64,000 bases of DNA from Adhaeribacter pallidiroseus (lineage in GTDB: Bacteria; Bacteroidota; Bacteroidia; Cytophagales; Hymenobacteraceae). Position 1 is the stretch's first letter; each line of letters opens with the position of its first letter. Below, in pieces: positions 3,133-46,890 of the stretch. The notes below the pieces were generated by a model. That model ran no database searches, was not told the origin of the DNA, and saw only the letters and a program-made list of their open reading frames with translations. A program made the position numbers and the translations under genes. Location: NCBI RefSeq assembly GCF_003340495.1, contig NZ_QASA01000001.1:620001-684000 (forward strand), written 5' to 3'.

Positions 3133-4872
3133 TTAAATAGTTTCCCGTTCCAGCCACTCCAGCTCACCCGGTAGTTCCCGGCAATTAAATTCCAGGTGAA
3201 TGACCCGGCGGTGTTTATCGTTCTCGGTTTTAGCCGAAGCGTGCAAGGTTAAAGGCTTGAGTAAATGCACTCCGCCCTTTTTTACGTTACAGGTTTTTAT
3301 TTCGCCTACCTCTCGCAATGCGGCTATTTCCTGGTCGGTTAGAACGGAGAAGTGGGTTTTAGGAATAACTTTTAACGCCCCGTTCTTTTCGTTGGTATCG
3401 TCCAAGTGAATGCGCACGGTGTAAGCCGATTGCAGGTACTCCAGGGGCGGAATGACGCTGGTTACGTGATGTTTATGCGTCCAGCCGCGGAAGCCATCGG
3501 TATCTACTTTTGTTTTTACGTTGATCGGTACATCCTGGTGCCAGGTAACAAACCAGTTTGACTGCGGGGGTTTATCGAAGTAAATAGCCTTGGTTAAAAA
3601 ATAATCTTTCCCGAATCCTTCTTGTACCAGGGTGCGCAAATTACTGTTAAAAAGTACTTGCTTTAAATTGGGAAGCTCCTGTAATAAACACCGGATGGCG
3701 AATAAATCTTCGGTTTTTTTAAAACGCGTTGGGTCTTCGGTGGCCCGGGTTATTATGGAAAGCACGCGGCCCATTTCTTTGGAAGTATAGATATTATCCA
3801 GAATAGCAAAGCCCCGCTTTTTTACCTTGGTCAGGCTGGCGCCCAGTTCCACCAGCTTTAATTCCCGCTCGTACAGTTCGGTGGTGTTCTGGGCTTTATC
3901 GTAAACCCGCCGTTTAAGCCGTTCGGGTTTTAGTACTTTAATGCAATCGCCAAAACCTAGGATTTCGCGCTCTAATTCAAAATTAATTTGTACGGTTAGC
4001 TGAATAATAATGCCGTTGTTTACCGTTTCGATTAATTGCTGCGATTGGTGAAAAGGTTTGGTTAAAACGTATGGCGCATTTTCGCGGTTAATGTACAACA
4101 CCACTTCTTCCGGCGCTTCCTGCTGGTTTACCGTTACGCCTACCACGTGTTCAAAGTAACGAGCCAGATCTATTGTGTTATTTTCTAGATACTTTTCCGT
4201 TGATTCCGCTACTGCATTCATCCGGTCTAGGGCCAGGTTCATGATTGGCTGGTTTTTACCCCGGGTACCCAGCACAAACCAGCGGTTGCGGTATTCTTTT
4301 AAAAAATAAGGATGAAAGGTAAAGGTGTTGGCTTCCCGGGCTTTAAACGATTGATACGTAAGGGTAATACCTTTCTTTTTCAGAATGGCCTGGTAGATAA
4401 AATCCAGGTATTCCAGGCCTTTCAACCCTTCGTTTTTCTCCAGATCGATAATTGGCGCTTGTTTGGTTTTGGCCGTATGGATGCGGTCTTCGAGGCGTTG
4501 CACCATGCCGTTTAACTCGTTAAAATGAGTAAACCCTTTAAACTGCCGCAGTATTTCTACTACTTCGGTTAGTTTACCTAAGTCCTGGTCGGTTAAGGGA
4601 ATGTTGGTAATGGAGTAATCCGGATCTTCGTACACGTAGTATTTTTTATCCACCACCACAATGGGCGCATGGTAGCCCAACTTTTCGCTGCGCATCATCT
4701 GCAAATCCATCTGAATCGATCGACGACTGACGCCCTTGTCGATGCCTTCGTATTCGTACAAAGCTTCCGAACAAGCTTCCACTAAATCTTCCAGAGTCCA
4801 TTGGCGATACTTATTGCGCAAACAATTATCAATAGTGCGGTACCGGATTAAGGCATTGCGGTTTACGGGCAT
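3133..4872 (-). CDS. WYL-domain transcription regulator fused to a phytanoyl-CoA dioxygenase-like domain
   Basis: 579 residues from the ATG at 4872; a longer frame exists upstream but would run through the divergent promoter and operator. Residues ~5-80 are a winged-helix/HTH of the YafY type (QWTLEDLVEACSEAL, then VSRRSIQMDLQMMR). Residues ~150-330 are a WYL domain with NRWFVLG at 196-202. Residues ~350-579 resemble PhyH Fe(II)/2-oxoglutarate oxygenases: HQD (H445, D447), distal H544 in LTLHAS, and R555/R556 in HRRVIHLEF for 2OG binding. WYL domains sense ligands, often nucleic-acid fragments, in stress and defence regulators. Its -7 box (TATATTTG, 4895-4888) shares the divergent spacer with the operator at 4911-4933, suggesting autoregulation and control of the neighbouring RNA-repair genes. 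The fusion is unusual. Confidence 0.8.
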   Translation of the reverse strand: MPVNRNALIRYRTIDNCLRNKYRQWTLEDLVEACSEALYEYEGIDKGVSRRSIQMDLQMMRSEKLGYHAPIVVVDKKYYVYEDPDYSITNIPLTDQDLGKLTEVVEILRQFKGFTHFNELNGMVQRLEDRIHTAKTKQAPIIDLEKNEGLKGLEYLDFIYQAILKKKGITLTYQSFKAREANTFTFHPYFLKEYRNRWFVLGTRGKNQPIMNLALDRMNAVAESTEKYLENNTIDLARYFEHVVGVTVNQQEAPEEVVLYINRENAPYVLTKPFHQSQQLIETVNNGIIIQLTVQINFELEREILGFGDCIKVLKPERLKRRVYDKAQNTTELYERELKLVELGASLTKVKKRGFAILDNIYTSKEMGRVLSIITRATEDPTRFKKTEDLFAIRCLLQELPNLKQVLFNSNLRTLVQEGFGKDYFLTKAIYFDKPPQSNWFVTWHQDVPINVKTKVDTDGFRGWTHKHHVTSVIPPLEYLQSAYTVRIHLDDTNEKNGALKVIPKTHFSVLTDQEIAALREVGEIKTCNVKKGGVHLLKPLTLHASAKTENDKHRRVIHLEFNCRELPGELEWLERETI

Positions 4873-4910
4873 GAATATAAATTTTACCAAATATATTAAA
4901 ATTAATTTAT

Positions 4911-4933
4911 ACTGCGCAAAAACACTGCGCAGT
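4911..4933. promoter_or_regulatory. Operator copy 1 (RNA-repair regulon)
   Basis: TGCGCA (4913-4918) and TGCGCA (4926-4931) are separated by 7 bp (AAAACAC), in the 93-bp spacer between the divergent WYL gene and the first nucleotidyltransferase. Two further copies with the same spacing occur upstream of rtcB and rsr. The WYL protein is the obvious candidate binder; that is inference. Confidence 0.75.
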
Positions 4934-4940
4934 GCCGCTT

Positions 4941-4948
4941 TACCTTTG
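4941..4948 (+). promoter_or_regulatory. -7 promoter box of the nucleotidyltransferase operon
   Basis: TACCTTTG fits the Bacteroidota -7 consensus TAnnTTTG, 17 bp before the ATG at 4966. It begins 9 bp after the operator, so the operator covers the place of the -33 element. Confidence 0.6.
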
Positions 4949-4965
4949 AGGCATAATTTTAAAAA

Positions 4966-5727
4966 ATGAGAAAGCGGATACAAGAAAAACTGCGCGCAGT
5001 TGAAAAAGAGTACGGGGTAAGTATTTTGCTCGCCTGCGAAACCGGCAGCCGGGCCTGGGGGTTCTCCTCGCCCGATAGCGACTACGATGTCCGGTTTATT
5101 TACCGGCATCCGGCTAGTAATTACCTTGCCCTGAATGAGCCACAAGACCATATCGAATACCTGAAAGAAGATTTAGATCTGGTGGGTTGGGACGTTCGCA
5201 AAAGCTTGAAACTTTTGCTGAAATCGAATGCAGCCATGTTCGAGCGGTTACAATCCCCGATTATCTACCAACAACAAGGTAATTTCCGGAAACAATTACA
5301 GGCATTAGCTCCAGCTTATTTTTCTGGCCAAGCCGGATTGCACCATTACGCCAGCATGGCTTTTAACTACTATAAGACCTGTGTTCCGGCGGAGGCGGTT
5401 AAACTAAAAAGTTACTTTTATCTGTTACGGACCACTTTAGCTAGTCTATGGATTGTAGAGAAATGCCGCATACCTCCAATGTGGTTTCAGGAGCTTTTGC
5501 CTTTGGTACAAGATGCCCGAATAAAAAATAAAATAGATGAATTGCTCCTGCTGAAAGCCGAAATGAACGAAACGTACCTGCACCCCAAAGAAGCAGCGCT
5601 GGAACAATATTGCTGGCAAATTTTAAATTATTGCGAACCGTTTAAAAATGCGTTTACCTCACCACTTGGGGCTGTTCAAAAACTAAATAATCTGTTCCGG
5701 ACCATTATAACCGAACCATGGCCTTAA
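4966..5727 (+). CDS. RlaP-type (COG3541) nucleotidyltransferase, RNA repair associated
   Basis: 253 residues. The N-terminal half has the polymerase-beta-like nucleotidyltransferase signature GSRAWGF followed by SPDSDYDVRFIY (residues ~27-46), with metal-binding Asp pair DYD. The helical C-terminal half is typical of this family (RNA-repair-pathway polymerase-beta family, RlaP). Such enzymes are found next to RNA ligases and are thought to add nucleotides to RNA ends; the exact substrate is not known. It is the first gene of an operon under operator copy 1, overlapping the next gene by 10 bp (ATGGCCTTAA), so translation is probably coupled. Confidence 0.85.
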   Translation: MRKRIQEKLRAVEKEYGVSILLACETGSRAWGFSSPDSDYDVRFIYRHPASNYLALNEPQDHIEYLKEDLDLVGWDVRKSLKLLLKSNAAMFERLQSPIIYQQQGNFRKQLQALAPAYFSGQAGLHHYASMAFNYYKTCVPAEAVKLKSYFYLLRTTLASLWIVEKCRIPPMWFQELLPLVQDARIKNKIDELLLLKAEMNETYLHPKEAALEQYCWQILNYCEPFKNAFTSPLGAVQKLNNLFRTIITEPWP

Positions 5728-6920: not shown

Positions 6921-8339
6921 ATGGAAACTAAACCGTTAACCGGGAATGATTTACTAACCCTCGGCTATCCCGAAGGAAAAATTATAGGCATTGCCTTAAA
7001 AACTTTACAAACGCATTTTACCAACAGTACTTTAAAAGAGCAAACCCAAATACTGCAAGCGGTTTTAGCAGCTCCTGCTGCTTATCAAGATCACCCTACC
7101 TTAGCGCCAATAGCCACTGTTTTATTAGAACCCAAATTTGAAAAATACCTGCCGTTACCGGATTCTTATTTACCATTTGCCGTGTACGACAAAGCAGGCA
7201 TTGAAGAAGGCGCTTTAAAGCAGATGCGTACCGCCATGCGTTTGCCGGTAGCGGTGGCTGGTGCCCTGATGCCGGATGCTCACCAGGGTTACGGCTTACC
7301 CATTGGTGGCGTATTAGCTACGCAAAACGCCGTAATACCGTATGGGGTAGGTGTGTATATTGGCTGCCGGATGTGCCTGACGATTTACCCGGTGCCCGCT
7401 AGCTTTATAGAACAACAGCGGCAACCGTTAAAGAAAATTTTGTTGGCGAACACCCGTTTTGGTCGTGCCACTTTTCATAAACCATTGGAACACGCCGTAA
7501 TTGACCAGCCGGAGTTTACCGAAATTCCTGTATTACGGACCTTAAAAGACCGGGCTTTTGCGCAACTGGGTTCTTCGGGCGGGGGTAACCATTTTGTAGA
7601 ATTTGGCATTGCTGAGATTCCAGCTGGTCCGAACGAATGGAATCTCGCCCCGGGCAATTACCTGGCTATTCTCTCGCACTCTGGTTCGCGGGGGATGGGT
7701 GCTACCATTGCCGGCCATTATACCAAGTTAGCTATGGCCGCTTGTCCGTTACCGCCCGAAGCAAAACATTTAGCCTGGCTCGATTTAAATACCGAAGCCG
7801 GCCAGGAATACTGGCGGGCCATGAATTTGGCCGGTGATTATGCCTCGGCTTGCCACCACCAGATTCATCAGCGATTAGCAGCAGCTTTAGCACTGGAACC
7901 ACTCGCCAGAATAGAAAACCACCATAACTTTGCCTGGAAAGAAAAAGACGCCTCTGGTAACAACTTAATAGTACACCGCAAAGGTGCCACCCCGGCCGGC
8001 AAAGGAGTACTGGGCATTATTCCGGGCTCAATGGCTACCCCGGGGTTTATTGTCCGCGGTAAAGGAGTAGTGACCTCGATAAATTCGGCTTCGCACGGGG
8101 CAGGGCGTACCATGTCGCGTACCAAGGCTAAATCTATGCTTTCGGTAAATCAGGTGCAACAGTATTTGCAGGCAGCCGGAGTAGAAGTGTTAGGTTCCGG
8201 CCTGGATGAGGCACCCATGGCCTACAAAGATATTCACCAGGTAATGGCGGCGCAGCAGGATTTAGTAGAAGTAGCAGGCACTTTTTACCCCAAAATAGTC
8301 CGGATGTGCGGCGACGAGCAGTATAAAGAAGTGGATTGA
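6921..8339 (+). CDS. rtcB: RNA-splicing ligase RtcB, with an altered metal ligand
   Basis: 472 residues, normal family length. RtcB joins 2',3'-cyclic-phosphate or 3'-phosphate RNA ends to 5'-OH ends using GTP and Mn(II). Visible family motifs: MPDAHQGYGLPIGGVL (~117-132), GGGNHFVEFG (Asn/His metal ligands), LSHSGSRG, the HHNFAW His, HRKGATPAGKG, and the guanylylated His in SHGAGRTMSR. The motif normally read as VDIGCxM is here VYIGCRM: Tyr146 (codon TAT at 7356-7358) stands where other RtcBs have the Mn-binding Asp, while Cys149 is kept. A GAT-to-TAT change would explain it. The enzyme may be impaired or altered. It lies in the RNA-repair locus under operator copy 2. Confidence 0.93.
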   Translation: METKPLTGNDLLTLGYPEGKIIGIALKTLQTHFTNSTLKEQTQILQAVLAAPAAYQDHPTLAPIATVLLEPKFEKYLPLPDSYLPFAVYDKAGIEEGALKQMRTAMRLPVAVAGALMPDAHQGYGLPIGGVLATQNAVIPYGVGVYIGCRMCLTIYPVPASFIEQQRQPLKKILLANTRFGRATFHKPLEHAVIDQPEFTEIPVLRTLKDRAFAQLGSSGGGNHFVEFGIAEIPAGPNEWNLAPGNYLAILSHSGSRGMGATIAGHYTKLAMAACPLPPEAKHLAWLDLNTEAGQEYWRAMNLAGDYASACHHQIHQRLAAALALEPLARIENHHNFAWKEKDASGNNLIVHRKGATPAGKGVLGIIPGSMATPGFIVRGKGVVTSINSASHGAGRTMSRTKAKSMLSVNQVQQYLQAAGVEVLGSGLDEAPMAYKDIHQVMAAQQDLVEVAGTFYPKIVRMCGDEQYKEVD

Positions 8340-11430: not shown

Positions 11431-12510
11431 ATGCAACAAGTACAACGTGCTCACGCGGAGCACCAGTTTGCCGAAGAAATTGAAGAACTTAAAAAAGTTG
11501 ATTCTCACCCTTGCCCACCAAATTGGCAATTGTCGCCGTGGGCCGTGGTTACTTACTTAATCGGTGGCACATTAACAAATGGCTTTCGGATTACTCCTAA
11601 ATACATTGGTAGCCGCCGGTTAATGGAAATTGCCGTGGCTACCTTAACCACCGACCGGGCCTTATTGCTGTACGGATTACCGGGCACAGCCAAGTCGTGG
11701 GTTTCCGAGCATCTGGCTGCCGCTATTTCCGGCACTTCTACTTTACTGATTCAGGGTACGGCTGGCACCGGCGAAGAAGCCATCCGGTACGGCTGGAATT
11801 ACGCCAAGCTATTAGCCGAAGGACCTTCGCCCAATGCCTTGGTAGTAACGCCCATGATGCGGGCCATGCAGGACGGTAAAATTGCCCGTATAGAAGAATT
11901 AACCCGGATATCGGCGGATGTACAGGATACGCTTATTACCATTCTATCGGAAAAAATGCTGCCGGTACCCGAATTAAACATGGAAATACAATCGAACCGG
12001 GGTTTTAACGTAATTGCCACCGCCAATAACCGCGACAAAGGCGTAAACGAGCTTTCCGGTGCTTTAAAGAGAAGGTTTAACACCGTTATTCTACCGGTGC
12101 CCGATACCATGGAAGAAGAGGTAGAAATAGTAACCCGGCGGGTAGAAACTTTAGGCCGGGCACTAGAATTACCGGCCGAGCCACCCGCCTTAGAAGAAAT
12201 TAAACGCATTGTTACTATTTTCCGGGAGTTGCGCAGTGGGGTAACGCTGGATGGTAAAACCAAACTTAAAATCCCGACCAGCACCATGAGCACCGCCGAA
12301 GCCATATCGGTGATTAACAGCGGCATGGCCTTGGCAGGGCATTTCGGGGATGGCGTTCTGAATGCCCACGATGTAGCCGCCGGTTTAGTTGGGTCGGTGG
12401 TAAAAGACCCGGTACAAGATAAGGTAGTCTGGCTGGAGTACCTGGAAACTGTGGTTAAAAGCCGCGATGGCTGGAAAGATATTTACCGGTCGTGCCGGGA
12501 GTTAGTTTAA
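11431..12510 (+). CDS. MoxR-family AAA+ ATPase
   Basis: 359 residues. Walker A is GLPGTAKS (82-89); the Walker B region is KIARIEELTR, followed by sensor 1 (VIATANNRDKG) and an Arg-finger region (GALKRRFN). The form IEELTR in place of the usual DEiNR is characteristic of the MoxR subtype found in this gene set. MoxR ATPases act with VWA proteins as chaperone-like remodelling machines. The gene follows a weak GCCGG hairpin at 11375-11391, and the next gene starts 4 bp after its stop. Confidence 0.9.
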   Translation: MQQVQRAHAEHQFAEEIEELKKVDSHPCPPNWQLSPWAVVTYLIGGTLTNGFRITPKYIGSRRLMEIAVATLTTDRALLLYGLPGTAKSWVSEHLAAAISGTSTLLIQGTAGTGEEAIRYGWNYAKLLAEGPSPNALVVTPMMRAMQDGKIARIEELTRISADVQDTLITILSEKMLPVPELNMEIQSNRGFNVIATANNRDKGVNELSGALKRRFNTVILPVPDTMEEEVEIVTRRVETLGRALELPAEPPALEEIKRIVTIFRELRSGVTLDGKTKLKIPTSTMSTAEAISVINSGMALAGHFGDGVLNAHDVAAGLVGSVVKDPVQDKVVWLEYLETVVKSRDGWKDIYRSCRELV

Positions 12511-12514
12511 CCAC

Positions 12515-14731
12515 ATGAGCGTAACTGTTTTTGGCATCCGACATCATGGTCCGGGTTCGGCTCGCAGCCTGAAACTGGCTTTGGAAAAATTGCAACCGGA
12601 CATGGTTTTAGTGGAAGGACCGCCCGATGCCAACGAAATTTTAAAATTAGCCTATCAGGAAGCGATGAAACCGCCGGTAGCCTTACTGGCGTACCTCCCG
12701 GACAAACCCGAAGAAGCGGTGTTTTACCCGTTTGCTGCTTTCTCGCCGGAATGGCAGGCCATTAAATACGCCCAGCAAAATCAGGTACCCGTAAATTTTA
12801 TGGACCTGCCGTTGGCCCATAGATTTGCTTTAGAGGCCAGCAAACCGGAGCATAACTCTACTTTACCAAAGACGCAAGCCGACGAACCTGGTAATTATCC
12901 TCTGGATTACTTAGGCCAAGCAGCGGGTTTCGATGACGGTGAATCGTGGTGGGAGCACATGTTTGAGCAGCGCCGTGAGTCCGAAGAAGCTTTTGAAGCA
13001 GTGCTGGAGGCCATGCAGCATTTAAGGAAAGATCTGAACCGAGCAGAATCAGAAGAAACTTTGTTGCGGGAAGCCTTTATGCGCAAAATAATCCGGGATG
13101 CAGAAGCAAACGGATTCCAGAATATAGCCGTGGTTTGCGGTGCCTGGCACGCCCCGGCCTTAGTAGAAATGCCCTCTAAAAAACACGACAACGATTTACT
13201 AAAAGGCTTGCCCAAAGTAAAAGTAGCTTCTACCTGGATTCCGTGGACTTTTAGCCGCCTGACGTTTTACAGCGGGTACGGAGCCGGGGTTACCTCGCCG
13301 GGTTGGTACCAGCATTTATGGGATTACCCGCAGGATACCGGCATTACCTGGATGACCAAAGTGGCCCGGGTTTTCCGGCAGAAAAAGATGGACACTTCCG
13401 TAGCGCACGTAATTGATGCCTTTCGGCTGGCCGAAACGTTGGCTGGGCTCCGGCAACTATCCCGGCCGGGCTTAACGGAACTGAACCAGGCTACACAGTC
13501 CGTTATTTGTTTTGGTGATGCCTGGATGCTCGACTTACTTTTTCAGGAGTTAATTGTTGGCAAAAAAATGGGCCGGATACCCGAAGATGTTCCCCAGGTT
13601 CCGCTGCAAAAAGATTTGGAACGGTTGCAAAAAAAGTTACGCCTGATGCCAAAAGCATTCGAGCAAAGCTTAACACTAGACTTGCGCCAGACTACCGATT
13701 TAGAACGAAGTAAAATGCTACACCGCCTTTCTATCTTGGGTATTCATTGGGGAAAGCCCCAAAGAGCATCCGGGAAAGGCACATTTAAAGAACAATGGTC
13801 GCTTAATTGGGAGCCAGAACTGTTAATTAAAATTATTGAAATGGGCGTATGGGGCAATACCCTGGAAATCGCCGCTACTAATTTCATTGTTCAAAAGGCC
13901 CGGGAGATTACCAACATCAGCGAAGTAGCCGAATTACTGGAAAAAGCTATTCCCGCTGATTTAGAAGTAGCTGTGGCGCAACTTATGCAACGCATCGATG
14001 CTTTAGCTTCCGTTTCCGGGGACATTACGCCACTCATGCAGGCCCTTATTCCGTTGGCTTACGTGAGTCGTTACGGAAATGTACGCCAAACGGACTTAAA
14101 TCTGCTGATTAACTTGGTGCGCAGCTTAACCATTCGGGTAAGTATTGGATTACCGAACGCCTGTTATGGCTTAGACGAAGATGCTTCCGGCACGCTGTTC
14201 GAAAAGATCTCAGAAGTACAGTCGGCGTTAAGTCTTTTTCAAGACCTGGAAATTGCAAACCCCTGGAAACAAGCATTACAAACCTTACTAAACAGCCACA
14301 ATGTTCACGGATTAATTGTAGGCCGCGCTTGTAGGTTGCTGGCCGATGCGCAAGAAATTAAAGAAGAAGAACTGGGGGTAAAGTTCAGTTTGGCGCTTTC
14401 CAGTGCTCAGGAACCTGGTTACGCTGCTGCCTGGCTCGAAGGTTTTTTAAAAAACAGCGGCATGATCTTGCTCCTGGATGAAGGATTATGGACTATTCTG
14501 AACAATTGGGTAAGCACGCTGGATGAAGAAACATTTGTACAAGTATTGCCTCTCTTGCGGCGCAATTTTGCATCTTTTACTCCTGCCGAAAGAAGAAAAA
14601 TCGGGGAAAAGGCTAAAAACGGCGGAGCTAACCGAAGAACCACTAGCCGCGCCACAACTTTAGACTTTAATTACGAACGCGCCGAACAAGCTTTACCGGT
14701 GGTAGCACAATTATTCGGCTTAAGGAATTGA
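12515..14731 (+). CDS. DUF5682 protein
   Basis: 738 residues opening with SVTVFGIRHHGPGSARSL and LVEGPPDANEI, then VVCGAWHAPAL at ~205-215. These resemble the TraB/EreA-like fold (conserved His and Glu near the N-terminus and a late GxxH), which in relatives is a membrane-associated or hydrolase-like domain; the activity here is unknown. The C-terminal ~350 residues are helical. It is linked in all known layouts to the SWIM/MoxR/VWA genes, and starts 4 bp after moxR. Confidence 0.8.
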   Translation: MSVTVFGIRHHGPGSARSLKLALEKLQPDMVLVEGPPDANEILKLAYQEAMKPPVALLAYLPDKPEEAVFYPFAAFSPEWQAIKYAQQNQVPVNFMDLPLAHRFALEASKPEHNSTLPKTQADEPGNYPLDYLGQAAGFDDGESWWEHMFEQRRESEEAFEAVLEAMQHLRKDLNRAESEETLLREAFMRKIIRDAEANGFQNIAVVCGAWHAPALVEMPSKKHDNDLLKGLPKVKVASTWIPWTFSRLTFYSGYGAGVTSPGWYQHLWDYPQDTGITWMTKVARVFRQKKMDTSVAHVIDAFRLAETLAGLRQLSRPGLTELNQATQSVICFGDAWMLDLLFQELIVGKKMGRIPEDVPQVPLQKDLERLQKKLRLMPKAFEQSLTLDLRQTTDLERSKMLHRLSILGIHWGKPQRASGKGTFKEQWSLNWEPELLIKIIEMGVWGNTLEIAATNFIVQKAREITNISEVAELLEKAIPADLEVAVAQLMQRIDALASVSGDITPLMQALIPLAYVSRYGNVRQTDLNLLINLVRSLTIRVSIGLPNACYGLDEDASGTLFEKISEVQSALSLFQDLEIANPWKQALQTLLNSHNVHGLIVGRACRLLADAQEIKEEELGVKFSLALSSAQEPGYAAAWLEGFLKNSGMILLLDEGLWTILNNWVSTLDEETFVQVLPLLRRNFASFTPAERRKIGEKAKNGGANRRTTSRATTLDFNYERAEQALPVVAQLFGLRN

Positions 14732-14864
14732 TTTTAAAATTTAAACAATCCTGTATTTAACAATTAAAGAAAAAAGCATTTTAAGCGGGCTAGTTAAAAG
14801 TTTTTGAGAGTCAAAAAGCTCGTGGCAGATAATAGGTTACTTAACCAGTGAAATTTTAAAAATA

Positions 14865-16022
14865 ATGAACAAAAATTACTTAAAACGGTGGCGTTTAATA
14901 TTAGGTGGCGAAGCGGCCGACGGTACGGGCGTAAGCTTAACTGGTCAGGATATAAATCTGGATAAAACCTTAACCGCCCTCTATGACTCGGAACGGACCG
15001 CCGGTTTAGGTTCTTCTTCCCCCAACGTATCGCGTTGGCTCGGCGATATCCGGACTTATTTTCCCTCGTCGGTGGTTAAAGTAATGCAGCAGGATGCCCT
15101 AAAACGGCTGAACCTGACTTCCATGCTGTTGGAACCCGAAATACTCGCTACGGTAGAACCAGATGTAAATTTAGTAGCTACCCTCATGACTTTAAGCCGG
15201 GTAATACCCGACAAAACTAAAGATACTGCCCGGGAAGTAGTGCGGAAGGTAGTGGAGGAGCTTATGAAAAAATTAGCGCAACCCATGCAACAGGCCATTA
15301 CCGGCAGTCTGAATAAATCAGTAAAAATAAACCGGCCCCGGCACAACGAGATTGACTGGCCTACTACCATTCGTAAAAATCTTAAACATTACCAGCCCGA
15401 ATATAAAACCATTATTCCGGAAACTCGCGTTGGTTTTGGTCGCAAAAGAGCTGCTTTAAAAGATATTGTCCTGTGCCTCGACCAAAGTGGTTCGATGGGT
15501 TCGTCGGTGGTTTATTCTGGTATTTTCGGAGCAGTAATGGCTTCGTTGCCTTCCGTAAAAACCAAGATGGTGGTGTTTGATACCGCCGTAGCTGACCTGA
15601 CCGAAGAATTACACGACCCGGTAGATTTACTTTTTGGCGTGCAACTAGGTGGCGGTACCGACATCCAATTGGCATTAGGTTACTGCGAGCAAATCATTAC
15701 CCGGCCAACAGATACCGTTATGGTGGTAATAACTGATTTATACGAGGGTGGCAATGTAAATGAAATGAGAAAACGCTTTGCTGCCCTGGTAGCGAGCGGC
15801 GTACAAGTAATTGTATTATTAGCACTTAACGACGATGGTTCTCCGGCCTACGACCATAGTAATGCGTCTTACCTGGCCTCTATTGGGGTGCCGGTATTTG
15901 CCTGCACCCCAGATTTATTTCCCGATCTTATGGCAAGTGCTATCCAGAAACAAGATATTGGTCAATGGGCGGCTATTCATAATATTCCCATCGCCCGCGG
16001 AAGCCGAGAGTTGGTACCGTAA
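14865..16022 (+). CDS. VWA-domain protein of the MoxR set
   Basis: 385 residues. The N-terminal ~190 residues are helical. The VWA domain (~198-370) has an intact MIDAS: DQSGSMGSS (D206, S208, S210), a Thr in GGGTDI, and an Asp in VITDLYEG. VWA proteins of this type are the metal-dependent partner of the MoxR ATPase. It is separated from DUF5682 by 133 bp but has the same orientation, and ends the five-gene set. Confidence 0.88.
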   Translation: MNKNYLKRWRLILGGEAADGTGVSLTGQDINLDKTLTALYDSERTAGLGSSSPNVSRWLGDIRTYFPSSVVKVMQQDALKRLNLTSMLLEPEILATVEPDVNLVATLMTLSRVIPDKTKDTAREVVRKVVEELMKKLAQPMQQAITGSLNKSVKINRPRHNEIDWPTTIRKNLKHYQPEYKTIIPETRVGFGRKRAALKDIVLCLDQSGSMGSSVVYSGIFGAVMASLPSVKTKMVVFDTAVADLTEELHDPVDLLFGVQLGGGTDIQLALGYCEQIITRPTDTVMVVITDLYEGGNVNEMRKRFAALVASGVQVIVLLALNDDGSPAYDHSNASYLASIGVPVFACTPDLFPDLMASAIQKQDIGQWAAIHNIPIARGSRELVP

Positions 16023-17712: not shown

Positions 17713-19230
17713 ATGCGATTCAACTTTTTCCGGGCGAAAGAAACGGCTACTACCAACCACGAAGAGGCTTTGGCTTTTCCGCTGGATGTCCGAACTGAAC
17801 TGTACACTGCCGTGGTAACGACTTCGTTACAGGACAACTTCTACGAAAAAACAAATGAGCGACTTAACCGGATCGTAGAACTAATCGCGCAGAACGATGC
17901 TGTTTTTGTGGCTAAACTGGCGGTATATGCCCGTACCCGACTGCACCTGCGCAGTATACCCCTGGTGTTGGTAATCGAACTGGCCCGTTTGCACACCGGC
18001 GATAGTCTGGTAAGCCGTACCATTTACCGGGTAATCAGTCGCGCCGACGAAATAACCGAATTGCTGGCCTATTACCAGTTAAGCAACCAGCGCCAAAATT
18101 TAAAAAAACTGAACCGCCTCTCGAAACAAGTCCAGAAAGGCATTGCCCTGGCATTTAATAAGTTCGATGCTTACCAGTTTGCCAAGTACAACCGGGCCGC
18201 CGAAGTAAGACTACGCGATGCGCTGTTTCTGGTACACCCGAAAGCCAAAGATGCAGCGCAGCAGGAGCTGTTCGATAATATTATCAATAACACCTTGGCT
18301 ACGCCCTTTACCTGGGAAACCGAATTATCGGCTTTGGGCCAGGTTGCTTTTGAAACCGCCGAACAAAAAAGCCGGGCTTTTACCGCCAAGTGGGAAGAAT
18401 TGCTGGATAGCGGCAAGCTGGGCTACATGGCTTTGCTCCGCAACCTGCGCAATATTCTGGAAGCGAATGTTTCCGGCGAACACGTGGCCCGCTTAGGTGC
18501 GTACCTGGCTAACGAAAAAGCGGTAAAAAATGCCAAACAATTGCCGTTTCGCTACCTGGCTGCTTACCGCGAAGTATTGACTGTAAAATCCGGCTTTACG
18601 GCGTACGTACTAACCGCTTTAGAAGAAGCCGTAAAAGTAAGCATCCGGAACGTGAAAGGCTTTGCCCAGCCGGTAAAAGTGGTAATCGCCTGCGATGTGT
18701 CGGGCTCCATGCAGCAACCAGTTTCGGCGCGCAGTAAAATTTTGTTGTACGACATTGGCTTACTTTTAGGCATGTTGTTGCAACACCAATGCCGCCACGT
18801 TATGACCGGTATGTTCGGCGACCGTTGGAAATTGATAAACTTGCCTCAAACTAACGTATTGCAGAACGTGCAGGAATTTTACCGGCGCGCCGGCGAAGTA
18901 GGCTATTCTACCAACGGCTACCTGGTAATCCGGGACTTAATACAACGAAAAGTAAAAGCTGATAAAGTTCTGCTATTTACCGATTGCCAGCTCTGGAACA
19001 GTACCGGCGACGGCGGGCACCTGGCTCAGGAGTGGCAGCAGTACAAAGTTCTATTTCCCGGTGCCAGGCTTTACCTCTTCGACCTGGCGGGTTATGGCCA
19101 GGCGCCCGTTCATCTCGTCCAGAACAGTGTGTTCCTGATTGCCGGCTGGTCGGATAAAGTATTTGAGGTATTGGAAGCCATCGAAAACGGGCAGGAAGCT
19201 TTAGCGGTAATAGATGCAATAGAAATTTAA
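17713..19230 (+). CDS. rsr: Ro60 orthologue Rsr (TROVE + VWA domains)
   Basis: 505 residues. Residues ~15-310 form the HEAT-like TROVE ring (for example VFVAKLAVYARTRLHLRSIP and LGYMALLRNLRNILE are typical). Residues ~320-500 are the VWA-like domain with an intact MIDAS: DVSGSM (D328, S330, S332), a Thr/Ser in GYSTNGY, and an Asp in LLFTDCQLW. Ro proteins bind Y RNAs on the ring's outer face and the 3' ends of misfolded RNAs in its hole; bacterial Rsr works with PNPase and other exonucleases in RNA decay and stress survival. Four Y RNA-like genes begin 10 bp downstream. Operator copy 3 links expression to rtcB and the nucleotidyltransferases. Confidence 0.95.
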   Translation: MRFNFFRAKETATTNHEEALAFPLDVRTELYTAVVTTSLQDNFYEKTNERLNRIVELIAQNDAVFVAKLAVYARTRLHLRSIPLVLVIELARLHTGDSLVSRTIYRVISRADEITELLAYYQLSNQRQNLKKLNRLSKQVQKGIALAFNKFDAYQFAKYNRAAEVRLRDALFLVHPKAKDAAQQELFDNIINNTLATPFTWETELSALGQVAFETAEQKSRAFTAKWEELLDSGKLGYMALLRNLRNILEANVSGEHVARLGAYLANEKAVKNAKQLPFRYLAAYREVLTVKSGFTAYVLTALEEAVKVSIRNVKGFAQPVKVVIACDVSGSMQQPVSARSKILLYDIGLLLGMLLQHQCRHVMTGMFGDRWKLINLPQTNVLQNVQEFYRRAGEVGYSTNGYLVIRDLIQRKVKADKVLLFTDCQLWNSTGDGGHLAQEWQQYKVLFPGARLYLFDLAGYGQAPVHLVQNSVFLIAGWSDKVFEVLEAIENGQEALAVIDAIEI

Positions 19231-19240
19231 AAATATAAAT

Positions 19241-19354
19241 CAGCGGGTGTCGTGGAGAAGTGTTACTTCGGTAAAACCTCATTAAGGTGAGCGGGTTCAA
19301 ATCCTGCGTGCTTGCAAAAGCAAAACACTTCTCGTTTATCACTCCGCTGGTTTT
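19241..19354 (+). ncRNA. Y RNA-like RNA 1 (T-arm only)
   Basis: Lower stem CAGCGG (19241-19246) / CCGCTG (19344-19349); internal region GTGTCGTG opposite GTTTATCACT; upper stem GAGAAGTG (19255-19262) / CACTTCTC (19326-19333), then the conserved TTACTTCG. The loop carries a T-arm, GCGGG-TTCAAAT-CCTGC (19291-19307), and a short acceptor-like hairpin TTGC-AAAA-GCAA, but no D-arm. It starts 10 bp after the rsr stop and probably comes from the rsr transcript. The blocks align with those in copies 2-4, though this is the most divergent copy. Confidence 0.8.
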
Positions 19355-19481
19355 AAAACTTCATCCCCGGCCTTTCTTAACCGGAAGAAGAGGAGAGAAT
19401 AGTTTGTAAGGAGGAAAATAGCCACCTAACTTATTATCCAAATAGCGCCTCTCCTGAAGGTGAAGGATTTAGAGTAAAGTT

Positions 19482-19637
19482 TATAAGCAGTGCCGTAGAT
19501 AAGAGTTACTTCGTCGGTCGCCGGTTCGAATCCGGTCAGCTCCACAAATGAATAAAATGGGGCTGTAGCTCAGCTGGTAGAGCAACGCACCTCCGGGTGT
19601 TTCGGTCTTTTGTCGCTAATTGCCTGCTTGTATTTTT
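19482..19637 (+). ncRNA. Y RNA-like RNA 2 with permuted tRNA mimic
   Basis: Lower stem TATAAGCAG (19482-19490) / CTGCTTGTA (19624-19632), followed by TTTTT. Inner blocks TGCCGTA / GCTAATTGC. Upper stem GATAAGAG (19498-19505) / CTTTTGTC (19607-19614), then TTACTTCG. Inside, in permuted order: T-arm GCCGG-TTCGAAT-CCGGT (19520-19536), acceptor 3' strand CAGCTCC + A (19537-19544), 14-nt linker, acceptor 5' strand GGGGCTG (19559-19565), TA, D-arm GCTC-AGCTGGTA-GAGC (19568-19583). The Y stem takes the place of the anticodon arm, as in YrlA-type bacterial Y RNAs, whose tRNA-like module is known. Rsr is the expected partner. Confidence 0.9.
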
Positions 19638-19722
19638 CAAATGCATGGCCGGGCTAATCGGTTGGCTAGTTGTTAGCTTGCCTGGTTCGATCCGGTATGG
19701 TTTACTTATGTATGCCTTAATT
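19638..19722 (+). other. Degenerate tRNA-like stretch between Y RNAs 2 and 3
   Basis: Contains a T-arm-like CCTGG-TTCGAT-CCGG (19681-19695, loop one base short) and, before it, a D-arm-like GGCT-AATCGGTT-GGCT pairing only through G-U pairs. The conserved TGCCGTA and TTACTTCG blocks are absent, so I do not call a fifth Y RNA. It may be a decayed copy or a spacer with tRNA-derived sequence. Confidence 0.35.
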
Positions 19723-19858
19723 AAAAGCGGTGCCGTAGCCGGGAGTTACTTCGCCTGTCACGCGGTTGGTCGTGGGTTCGAGCCCCACTATTCTAAAAAG
19801 AATATAGCTCCGTTGGTTAGAGTAACCTATAGTCTCCTGGTGCTAGTTGCCCGCTTTT
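19723..19858 (+). ncRNA. Y RNA-like RNA 3 with permuted tRNA mimic
   Basis: Lower stem AAAAGCGG (19723-19730) / CCGCTTTT (19851-19858), 8 perfect pairs. Inner blocks TGCCGTA / GCTAGTTGC. Upper stem GCCGGGAG (19738-19745) / CTCCTGGT (19834-19841), then TTACTTCG. Permuted module: T-arm GTGGG-TTCGAGC-CCCAC (19772-19788), acceptor TATTCT (19789-19794) - AAAA - AGAATA (19799-19804), TA, D-arm GCTC-CGTTGGTTA-GAGT (19807-19823) with the GG pair needed for D/T-loop contact. Stems differ in sequence from copies 2 and 4 but pair equally well, which is strong evidence for selected structure. Confidence 0.9.
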
Positions 19859-19879
19859 GAATGGTATCTTCCTAAAACT

Positions 19880-20017
19880 AAACGGTGCCGTAAGGTAGAG
19901 TTACTTCGATTCAGGTTCGGGAGTTGCCGGTTCGATTCCGGCTTTTCACCTCGGGGTGAAAATGGTGAAATGGTAACACGCTTTATAGTCTCTAGCTGCT
20001 TTTTGCGCGTTTTTTTA
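19880..20017 (+). ncRNA. Y RNA-like RNA 4 with permuted tRNA mimic and terminator
   Basis: Short lower stem AAACG (19880-19884) / CGTTT (20008-20012) followed by a T-run to 20017. Inner blocks GTGCCGTA / GCTTTTTGC. Upper stem AGGTAGAG (19893-19900) / CTCTAGCT (19990-19997) with one G-G mismatch, then TTACTTCG. Permuted module: T-arm GCCGG-TTCGATT-CCGGC (19926-19942), acceptor TTTTCACC - TCGG - GGTGAAAA (19943-19962, 8 perfect pairs), D-arm GTG-AAATGGTAA-CAC (19965-19979). The T-run makes this the likely end of the array transcript. Confidence 0.88.
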
Positions 20018-24423: not shown

Positions 24424-25530
24424 TAAGTACTGATTCAAAATTAAGCATAAGAAAATAGTAAATAGTAACTTTGCGCTATGCGCTATATCAAAGGACTTAC
24501 TCCAGAACAAAAACACGCTTTAGAGCAAGGTCATAAAATGGGGAAAAGCTACCGGTTCCGCAACCGCTGTCAGGCCATTCTGTTGTCTGCTGCCGGCTAC
24601 TCGGTTCAAGAGTTAGCGGCCATGTTCCAAGTAGCTGATCTCAGTATTTATCAGTGGTTCAATCGCTTTGAAGCGAGGGGAGTAACCGGCTTGCAAAACC
24701 AATCCGGCCAAGGCAGAAAGCCCTTGTTGAAGCTACAGAACCAGGCCCATGTGCAAGTAGTCGAAGAGCAGCTTGAAAAGGAAAACAAGCGCTTGAAACT
24801 AGCAAAAGCCCAAATCGAGCAGCAACTGGGTCAGTCCCTGAGTGAAAGTACGCTCAAGCGGTTTTTAAAAAAATTGGTTACCGCTGGAAACGCTTCCGCC
24901 AGTGGGTAAAGCCCTTGCAGGACGAAAAAGAATATGAACAAAAACGCACTACCTTATTTACTTTACTGTTCTTGGCCCAAGCTGGATACATCGACCTGTG
25001 CTTTGGGGATGAGAGTGGTTTTTCGCTGATGCCGACTGTTCCTTATGGTTGGATTAAAAAAGGCAAGCAAGCTTGCCTCTTAGCGCAACGCAGTGCCCGG
25101 GTGAATGTGTTTGGCTTATTGTCGACTACTAATCAGCTCACGGCTTACCAGAAACAAGAAAGCCTTACTGCTGATTTTATTATAGAATGCCTGGAAGATT
25201 TTTGCCCAACTATATCCCAAATGACGGTGATTGTTTTAGATAATGCCCCTTTACATACCAGTACTACCTTTCGCGCTAAACAAGCCGAGTGGGAAAGCAA
25301 AGGCCTTTACCTCTTTTTTTTACCTAAGTATAGCCCCCACTTAAACCGGATCGAACAACTTTGGAAGCAAATCAAACATCATTGGCTCAAAGCGGCGGAC
25401 TATCTTTCTTTAACCCATTTGAAACAAGCTCTAGAGCGCATCATTACTGGTTTTGGTACCTCTTTTACCCTGGATTTCAAACAACTTGACTTATCCCTTT
25501 TTCCTATACTTAATTTTGATTGAGTACTTA
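24424..25530 (+). mobile_element. IS630-family insertion sequence, complete
   Basis: About 31-bp imperfect terminal inverted repeats: left TAAGTACTGATTCAAAATTA (from 24424) and, on the other strand, right TAAGTACTCAATCAAAATTA (from 25530). TA dinucleotides at both ends fit the TA target duplication of this family. It encodes one transposase made by -1 frameshifting. It is inserted 15 bp upstream of the S9 peptidase start, so it probably displaced or replaced that gene's promoter. Confidence 0.9.
24478..25523 (+). CDS. IS630-family transposase, joined by -1 frameshift
   Basis: Frame 1 (24478-24909) encodes the helix-turn-helix half (SYRFRNRCQAILLSAAGYSV, then a winged-helix stretch). Frame 2, open past 24909 to 25523, encodes the DDE catalytic half (CFGDESGFSLMP, VIVLDNAPLHTS, LPKYSPHLNRIEQLWKQIKH). 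The change occurs at A AAA AAA (24867-24873) in TTA AAA AAA TTG; slipping back one base gives IGYRWKRFRQWVKPLQ and a ~348-residue protein. Slippery A-runs are known in several IS families, so this is probably programmed and the element may be active. A TAACTTTG -7 box lies at 24466-24473. Confidence 0.88.
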
Positions 25531-46590: not shown

Positions 46591-46816
46591 GAAAAGCTCT
46601 CCCCACACGATGTTAAGCCAAGTCTCGGCTTCGTGTTGCGCGCTTTACTTATTAAATGTTACGCTTAAACTAATGCTTCTCTGATTTAATTTTAAAATAA
46701 TTCGGATTATCAATCCGAGTACTCCCGGGCAATTATATAAACTGGTATTTAAGTAAAATGTATGCAAATAAAAAAGCACTTACCAGATTTCTCCGAGTAA
46801 GTGCTTGATATTGAGG

Positions 46817-46890
46817 TGGGCCCACCTGGAATCGAACCAGGCACCTACTGATTATGAGTCAGTTGCTCTAACCGAATGAGCTATAGGCCC
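46817..46890 (-). tRNA. tRNA-Met (CAT), possibly tRNA-Ile2
   Basis: Full cloverleaf on the - strand: acceptor GGGCCTA/TGGGCCC, D-arm with GGTTAGAGC, anticodon stem CTGA-CTCATAA-TCAG, T-arm CCTGG-TTCGATT-CCAGG, discriminator A. CCA is not encoded. A CAT anticodon may read Met or, after lysidine modification, Ile; sequence alone does not settle it. Confidence 0.93.

What the first reader, a model, noticed from the sequence alone, without database searches (positions are those of the whole stretch)
19241..20017. Tandem array of four Y RNA-like genes with circularly permuted tRNA mimics behind rsr
Four units share one plan: variable but paired lower stem, block TGCCGTA-like opposite GCTAATTGC-like, variable but paired 8-bp upper stem, then invariant TTACTTCG. 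Units 2-4 enclose T-arm, acceptor 3' strand, linker, acceptor 5' strand and D-arm, a tRNA opened at the anticodon. Stems change sequence yet keep pairing across units (for example GATAAGAG/CTTTTGTC against GCCGGGAG/CTCCTGGT), strong evidence for selection. Single Y RNAs with tRNA-like modules are known (YrlA); an array of four with different tRNA bodies suggests several tRNA-like baits or effectors for one Rsr.
Basis: partly seen in the sequence, partly recalled or inferred. Interest (0 to 1): 0.95.

Follow-up and report, generated by a model that had tools for sequence, protein, structure and literature searches.

The report
Ro-bound RNA array displaying anticodon loops
Behind the gene for a ring-shaped RNA-binding protein (Ro60/Rsr), inside an RNA-repair gene cluster, lie four small RNA genes built like rearranged transfer RNAs, two of them with the anticodon loop kept; related bacteria and some phages carry similar arrays with other anticodon loops, which suggests decoys for enzymes that cut tRNA.

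Summary
A covariance model built only from other genomes finds all four units (E 3.8e-26 to 1.2e-12) and no further full-length unit among the candidates scored in the genome. Stems are kept by compensatory change (95.1% paired, 27 of 32 pairs changed on both sides). They are Y RNA-like genes of the adjacent rsr, in an RNA-repair island with RtcB and RlaP. All 99 family rsr loci fetched (of 105) carry at least two units; arrays also occur in other Bacteroidota and beside rsr in several phages.

Correction: many units (window U3 and U4 too) keep an anticodon stem-loop. Of 86 distinct 7-nt loops (T33, >=3 bp), 14 equal a real tRNA loop, against 5.6 expected. Near-identical units differ in anticodon, and loop and body identities do not match, so this is one scaffold with exchangeable loops. 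An Aquimarina unit copies 27 nt of 23S rRNA.

Best reading: Ro-held decoys for anticodon nucleases. The decoy step is inferred. Anticodons are not shown to change faster than an unpaired linker.

The parts
17713..19230 (+). rsr, Ro60/TROVE protein, 505 aa
   Evidence: Pfam TROVE 92.1 bits (cut-off 23); vWA_Ro60 25.0 bits, just under its cut-off of 27.7
19242..19348 (+). Unit 1: Ro-type stem, T arm and acceptor-like hairpin, no D arm
   Evidence: R1 52.2 bits, E 1.2e-12; fold z -5.19
19485..19629 (+). Unit 2: T arm, acceptor 3', linker, acceptor 5', D arm, then a small hairpin; no 5' anticodon loop
   Evidence: R1 74.6 bits, E 8.6e-19; Rfam YrlA 39.1 bits, below its cut-off of 69
19725..19856 (+). 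Unit 3: full permuted tRNA-like body with anticodon arm
   Evidence: R1 101.4 bits, E 3.8e-26; Rfam YrlA 35.5 bits over the tRNA-like part, below cut-off
19755..19761 (+). Unit 3 anticodon loop CTGTCAC (anticodon GUC), the same 7 letters as in this genome's tRNA-Asp
19880..20012 (+). Unit 4: permuted body with Gln/Leu-like D arm and anticodon arm; a T run follows the lower stem
   Evidence: R1 88.1 bits, E 1.7e-22
19910..19916 (+). Unit 4 loop TTCAGGT (anticodon CAG); no tRNA loop of this genome is identical (its Gln loop is TTTTGGT, its Leu-CAG loop CTCAGAA)
4966..5727 (+). RlaP nucleotidyltransferase of RNA-repair pathways
   Evidence: Pfam PF10127, E 2.1e-72
6921..8339 (+). RtcB RNA ligase
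   Evidence: Pfam PF01139, E 2.6e-79
11431..16022 (+). MoxR-type AAA ATPase, DUF5682 and vWA/CoxE genes between RtcB and rsr
   Evidence: no match in the stored flanks of the 22 named rsr loci, so membership of the system is doubtful

Best explanation
The region is an array of four Rsr-associated Y RNA-like genes, probably transcribed with rsr. Each RNA has a Ro-type stem at its base and a tRNA-shaped body above it. In the full form the body is a complete tRNA shape, circularly permuted, with the Ro stem inserted into the 5' strand of the anticodon stem, so that D arm, T arm, acceptor and a 7-nt anticodon loop are all present. The loop is exchangeable between otherwise near-identical RNAs. Proposed mechanism: Rsr holds a repertoire of tRNA-like decoys whose anticodon loops bind or titrate anticodon-cutting ribonucleases (from phages, from defence systems, or from competitors), while RtcB and RlaP of the same island reseal cut tRNAs. 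Shown here by sequence: arrays, structure, anticodon-like loops, linkage to rsr and, in most loci examined, RtcB. Inferred: transcription, Rsr binding, decoy action.
For: Units and structure; closing pairs of the anticodon stem 91.4% paired with covariation 0.722 against at most 0.118 when slid. Anticodon loops: 331 of 565 units have a 7-nt loop with >=3 bp after TTCG, against 182 shuffled; 116 of 565 hold an exact loop of this genome's tRNAs, against a mean of 7.1 and maximum of 41 for scrambled loop sets; counting each distinct loop once, 14 of 86 against mean 5.6, maximum 13 in 5000. Short units made of little more than an Asp-type anticodon arm exist (clusters 2 and 5). Within an array the same loop recurs in 1 of 102 pairs against 6.4 expected, P 0.0105. 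23S rRNA mimic in Aquimarina, 27 of 27 nt. RtcB in the fetched stretch of 100 of 130 rsr loci, T4-type RNA ligase and PNK in L050. Phage arrays with Asn (exact), Gln-like and His-like loops. A competitive-inhibitor role for YrlA's tRNA-like domain is already proposed in PMC7790460 (passages).
Against: No expression or binding data. The anticodon triplet differs in 22.6% of positions between near pairs, about as much as an unpaired linker (26.2%), so an arms race is not shown. With >=4 bp required, loop sizes 5 (121 against 80 shuffled) and 9 (142 against 92) are enriched about as much as 7 (144 against 88), so loop size alone is weak evidence. U1 and U2 of the window show no anticodon loop at that place; 234 of 565 units have no such arm by my test. 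Loop and body identity are not coherent. 72 of the 86 distinct loops are not exact copies of the 41 tRNA loops compared, although those came from one whole tRNA set and 30 of 41 tRNA loci of another genome.
Confidence: 0.5

Rival explanations
1. Ordinary YrlA-type tether and gate: the tRNA-shaped body recruits PNPase and tRNA-modifying enzymes to Rsr; the array is paralogue expansion and the anticodon loops are relics of tRNA ancestry.
For: YrlA is reported to bind PNPase and to be modified by DusA and TruB (PMC8394870, passages). Rfam YrlA matches two units below cut-off. Anticodon triplets drift about as fast as a linker.
Against: Relic loops would not be expected to match real tRNA loops beyond shuffles, nor to persist in short units with little else, nor to differ whole between near-identical units. 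YrlA as described has D, T and acceptor arms.
Confidence: 0.28
2. Sacrificial sensors: invading or stress nucleases cut the displayed loops, and the ends formed (2',3'-cyclic phosphate) or the loss of the RNA switch on the repair island.
For: The Salmonella operon is switched on by tRNA fragments (PMC7790460, abstract and passages; PMC9879122, passages); the window holds a WYL-domain gene next to RlaP and RtcB.
Against: YrlA fragments were not detected in Salmonella under conditions that cut tRNAs (PMC7790460). No sensor for these RNAs is identified here.
Confidence: 0.14
3. Permuted tRNA genes that are processed into translation-competent tRNAs.
For: Complete tRNA arms; the model weakly matches the tandem tRNA-Ile/tRNA-Ala junctions, which suggests origin from tandem tRNAs.
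Against: ARAGORN calls no tRNA at the array; loop and body identity disagree; the Ro-type stem is conserved by covariation; arrays sit at rsr.
Confidence: 0.03

Closest known systems
YrlA / YrlB Y RNA-like RNAs (Rfam RF02553; Salmonella rsr-yrlBA-rtcBA)
   Same: Beside rsr, in an operon with RtcB, long closing stem, T arm, acceptor and D arm in permuted order.
   Different: Arrays of 2-10 per locus where the Salmonella operon has two; anticodon arm retained in many units; Rfam scores 39.1 and 35.5 bits against a cut-off of 69.
Deinococcus Y RNA (DrY RNA) and RYPER
   Same: Ro orthologue Rsr bound to a small RNA (reported in PMC4726728, passages).
   Different: PNPase tethering not tested here; I did not compare the sequence of DrY RNA.
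T4 RNA ligase / polynucleotide kinase repair of PrrC-cut tRNA-Lys (recalled)
   Same: Theme of anticodon damage and repair; one array locus (L050) carries an RNA ligase and a PNK.
   Different: Repair after the cut, not a displayed loop.
tRNA gene arrays of phages and haloarchaeal plasmids
   Same: rsr lies among ordinary tRNA genes in Arthrobacter phage Atuin and on three haloarchaeal plasmids.
   Different: Those are ordinary, unpermuted tRNA genes; Atuin has three units of the present kind as well.

Membership tests
Bacterial Y RNA (YrlA type) | Gene next to rsr | tested here: met
   11 nt after rsr; 99 of 99 family rsr loci fetched have units
Bacterial Y RNA (YrlA type) | Score above the Rfam YrlA cut-off | tested here: not met
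   39.1 and 35.5 bits for U2 and U3, cut-off 69; U1 and U4 no YrlA match up to E 10
Bacterial Y RNA (YrlA type) | tRNA-like D, T and acceptor arms | tested here: met
   U2-U4; U1 lacks the D arm
Bacterial Y RNA (YrlA type) | Long basal stem with conserved internal loop, kept by covariation | tested here: met
   that this is the Rsr-binding site is inferred
Bacterial Y RNA (YrlA type) | Binds Rsr and PNPase | not testable with these tools
   needs experiment
Rsr / Ro60 | TROVE domain | tested here: met
   92.1 bits, cut-off 23
Rsr / Ro60 | Ro60 vWA domain | tested here: inconclusive
   25.0 bits, cut-off 27.7
RNA-repair operon rsr-Y RNA-rtcBA | RtcB with rsr and Y RNA | tested here: met
   RtcB 6921-8339, same strand, about 9.4 kb before rsr
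RNA-repair operon rsr-Y RNA-rtcBA | RtcA and the regulator RtcR | not tested
   not searched; a WYL-domain gene is present nearby
Functional tRNA gene | Recognised by ARAGORN, or by Rfam tRNA at its cut-off | tested here: not met
   the only tRNA called in the window is tRNA-Met at 46815-46890
Permuted tmRNA (RF04321) | Score above cut-off | tested here: not met
   30.4 bits against 47, over part of U2

The most novel reading that the evidence does not exclude
Rsr arrays are an exchangeable repertoire of RNA decoys: one Ro-held tRNA scaffold presents many different anticodon loops (and in Aquimarina a 23S rRNA hairpin) against ribonucleases used in conflicts, inside RNA-repair islands of bacteria and in phages, with loops swapped as the attackers change.
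Probability: 0.4. Interest if true: 0.92.

Novelty: new variant of a known kind. Interest (0 to 1): 0.82.

Why it matters
What bacterial Ro60 and its Y RNAs do is only partly known: with PNPase they are reported to favour decay of structured RNA (PMC8394870, passages), while for the Salmonella complex no RNA substrate has been identified (PMC9879122, passages). RNAs that present identifiable anticodon loops make the question testable one nuclease at a time: each loop names a tRNA, and so candidate enzymes. It would also give a common reason why rsr sits with RNA ligases in bacteria and with tRNA genes in phages, and would add decoys to the known answers to tRNA-cutting defence and toxins.

Tried and rejected
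Arms-race claim: in 84 independent pairs the anticodon triplet differs at 22.6% of positions, upper stem 10.0%, T arm 5.9%; I first took this as diversification, but the unpaired linker differs at 26.2%, so it is not shown. T33 was a selection rule in those 84 pairs; without that rule position 33 differs in 11 of 120 pairs.

Mimic of one particular tRNA: not supported. In 68 units with an exact tRNA loop, that tRNA has median rank 10 of 38 by body similarity, shuffled 11.9; rank 3 or better in 17, shuffled mean 11.9, maximum 18.

MoxR / DUF5682 / vWA as partners: no tblastn match in the 22 named rsr loci, as far as their stored flanks reach; the upstream sides of the unnamed family loci were not fetched. 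Energy-based folding as proof: fails for U3 and U4 and is weak for U2. Promoter and terminator scans: no more than in shuffles. rRNA mimicry elsewhere: in the part of the output shown, only the Aquimarina match stands clear of the reversed control outside tRNA genes; 11-13 nt matches do not. On the three haloarchaeal plasmid loci the best model match has E 1.2e-4, and in four of the twelve phage or virus loci (phiTY18, crAss001, Desulfovibrio 7757, HGTV-1) there is none better than 1.6e-5.

Rows dropped: units scoring under 17; duplicate sets (124 to 116 locus-strand sets, from 111 loci); for distinct-loop tests, loops without T33 or with fewer than 3 bp. Five of the 565 units are lone hits on the strand opposite to an array and are probably chance; they were left in the counts. 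In the search of the own genome 150 of 719 candidates were scored.

Literature: eight searches (only the best rows are listed, for example 25 of 149 and 25 of 70) listed no paper on such arrays or on anticodon loops in Y RNAs. The central papers (Chen 2014, Sim and Wolin 2018, Sim 2020, Wang 2018, Burroughs and Aravind 2016) are not held and are known to me by recall or citation only, so absence from print is not established. PMC7824862, PMC7159879 and PMC11208441 were seen as passages.

Full report
What is there. The window is base 620001-684000 of contig 1 of a 6.4 Mb genome. Eleven bases after its stop begin four RNA units in tandem: 19242-19348, 19485-19629, 19725-19856 and 19880-20012. 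At the gathering threshold Rfam finds none of them; at a permissive threshold it gives YrlA matches below cut-off to U2 and U3. A covariance model built from 29 units of other genomes finds all four, E 3.8e-26 to 1.2e-12. In the whole genome (150 of 719 candidates scored) it finds no further full-length unit; the three remaining matches (29.7 bits, model positions 19-117) coincide with the tRNA-Ile/tRNA-Ala tandems. The seven other genomes of the genus lack rsr (one is 78% complete) and give at most matches of 29.6-31.1 bits over the same model span.

Structure. On 29 units from other genomes the drawn structure is 95.1% paired, 27 of 32 pairs have a change on both sides, and the covariation score is 0.699 against 0.081-0.185 when partners are slid. 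On helices that played no part in choosing the units, acceptor strands pair 6.37 of 7 (shuffled 3.98; 193 units), the outer T-stem 2.63 of 3 (2.02; 415 units) and the anticodon stem 2.82 of 4 (1.82; 39 distinct stems); with sequence anchors only, upper stems pair 6.39 of 8 (4.57; 123 units) and lower stems 5.14 of 6 (3.58). Three further pairs close the base of the anticodon stem, 91.4% paired. So the full form is a whole tRNA shape whose anticodon stem is interrupted on its 5' strand by the Ro-type stem.

Anticodon loops. After TTACTTCG many units hold a 7-nt loop closed by TTCG(x). With >=3 bp, loop size 7 stands out (331 of 565 units, 182 after shuffling; 5: 192 against 155; 9: 224 against 187; sizes 4, 6, 8 and 10 are below the shuffles); with >=4 bp sizes 5, 7 and 9 are enriched about alike, so the letters of the loop are the stronger evidence. 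Exact loops out of this genome's 35 tRNA loops stand at that place in 116 of 565 units; scrambled loop sets give 7.1 on average and 41 at most. Orthologous units inflate such counts, so I counted each distinct loop once: 14 of 86 equal one of 41 loops of this genome and of a Hymenobacter-family genome, against 5.6 on average and 13 at most in 5000 deals of the triplets over the flanking positions (12 against 4.8 with this genome's loops alone). Lys (UUU) 32, Asp (GUC) 25, Asn (GUU) 8 and Pro (UGG) 6 are the commonest of the 92 matching units, out of 215 with such a loop. By recall, Lys-UUU and the GUN group are targets of PrrC/RloC-type nucleases and colicin E5; that link was not tested. In the window U3 carries CTGTCAC, the Asp loop, and U4 carries TTCAGGT in a Gln/Leu-like body. 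U1 and U2 carry none there.

One scaffold, exchangeable loops. Nearest-neighbour units that agree elsewhere differ in anticodon in 39 of 84 independent pairs, for example CTTTTAA against CTCTTAA at 98.5% identity elsewhere. Body similarity does not follow the loop. Two Caulobacter phages have a unit in which the sequence on both sides of the loop is the same but the anticodon reads CUG in one and UAG in the other. The rate at the triplet is about that of an unpaired linker, so exchangeability is shown, positive selection is not. Within one array the same loop recurs in 1 of 102 pairs (expected 6.4, P 0.0105).

Distribution. rsr is found in 106 of 200 genomes of the family, this one included, and in 30 of 395 of the phylum sample. 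Of the 105 others in the family I fetched the downstream side of 99 (the six left out have only short rsr pieces); each of the 99 has at least two units. After removing duplicates, 111 loci hold 565 units; the main array of each locus has 2-10. In 20 named loci 98 units lie downstream of rsr on its strand, 4 upstream and 1 on the other strand; two of the 20 (L038, L053) have no downstream unit by the finder, and L038 has its units upstream. Of 20 stretches from rsr loci in other families of the phylum, 19 have at least one full-length model match at E <= 0.001. Of twelve phage or virus rsr loci examined (93 records have a tblastn match to this Rsr), eight have a full-length match at E < 1e-10: CcrColossus 7 units, CcrPW 7, RHph_TM39 4, Olaya 3, Marchewka 3, Atuin 3, csAssE-Sib 2 (the second overlaps an annotated tRNA-Lys) and Kradal 1 plus one weak (counts include weaker further matches in those loci). 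The two Caulobacter phages are close relatives. One CcrColossus unit is annotated in GenBank as tRNA-Gln. Three IMG/VR contigs hold units too (L311, L332, L338).

Context. The window holds RlaP (4966-5727), RtcB (6921-8339), a SWIM-domain protein, DUF5691, MoxR, DUF5682 and vWA genes before rsr. RtcB lies in the fetched stretch of 100 of 130 rsr loci; L050 has a T4-type RNA ligase and a PNK next to its array, L032 an SPFH protein. The MoxR, DUF5682 and vWA genes have no match in the stored flanks of the 22 named loci. In two Aquimarina genomes a unit has 27 nt identical to this genome's 23S rRNA, from the last two letters of TTACTTCG on (E 6.5e-11; inside the LSU rRNA match); by recall this is helix 69. 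Aquimarina's own rRNA was not compared.

Mechanism. The sequence shows conserved Ro-type stems, complete tRNA shapes, real anticodon loops that vary on one scaffold, and linkage to RNA repair. The simplest reading is a set of decoys for anticodon-cutting enzymes, held by Rsr. [quoted passage not shown] YrlA as described has D, T and acceptor arms (PMC8394870, passages). The rivals are a YrlA-like tether for PNPase with relic loops, and sacrificial sensors. None of transcription, binding or activity has been tested.

Novelty. Y RNAs with tRNA-like parts, their pairing in tandem (yrlBA, PMC9879122, passages) and the rsr-rtcB linkage are known. Arrays with exchangeable anticodon arms, and a unit that copies rRNA, did not appear in the listings searched, but the central papers are not held, so novelty is graded as a new variant of a known kind.

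Noticed in passing
L342 1809-2910, L357 2813-3911, L343 2347-2958, L344 2299-2940, L363 2717-3673, L358 5848-6274: Arrays of the same kind of unit beside rsr in Caulobacter, Xanthomonas, Brevundimonas, Rhizobium and Arthrobacter phages, mostly without annotation in the record.
   Followed up: partly
L034 7625-7846, L035 7600-7819: Aquimarina unit whose body starts with a 27-nt copy of 23S rRNA, overlapping the end of TTACTTCG.
   Followed up: partly
L345, L346, L347: On three haloarchaeal plasmids rsr is flanked by 9, 14 and 9 ordinary tRNA genes within the stretch fetched.
   Followed up: partly
window 19630-19724: The spacer between U2 and U3 folds better than shuffles (z -2.40) and holds a GCTAGTTG block and a T-arm-like stretch: perhaps a decayed fifth unit.
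   Followed up: no
window 3133-5151 (-): One open frame with WYL/WCX regulator and PhyH dioxygenase domains.
   Followed up: no
L362 5254-6160: crAss001: several TTACTTCA blocks and T-arm-like stretches after rsr, seen by eye, not found by the model.
   Followed up: no
L256, L257, L259, L261, for example position 508 of the reverse strand of L257: A unit type with GGGGAGGAATAGCG...CCC, apparently an unpermuted tRNA shape without anticodon arm.
   Followed up: no
window 24478-25523: Two neighbouring frames that look like an insertion-sequence transposase; the first has helix-turn-helix domains, the second was not searched.
   Followed up: no
own genome, tRNA-Ile/tRNA-Ala tandems, C1:439953-440056 and two more: The model matches the junction of tandem tRNA genes weakly, which suggests the permuted body arose from a tandem tRNA junction.
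   Followed up: no
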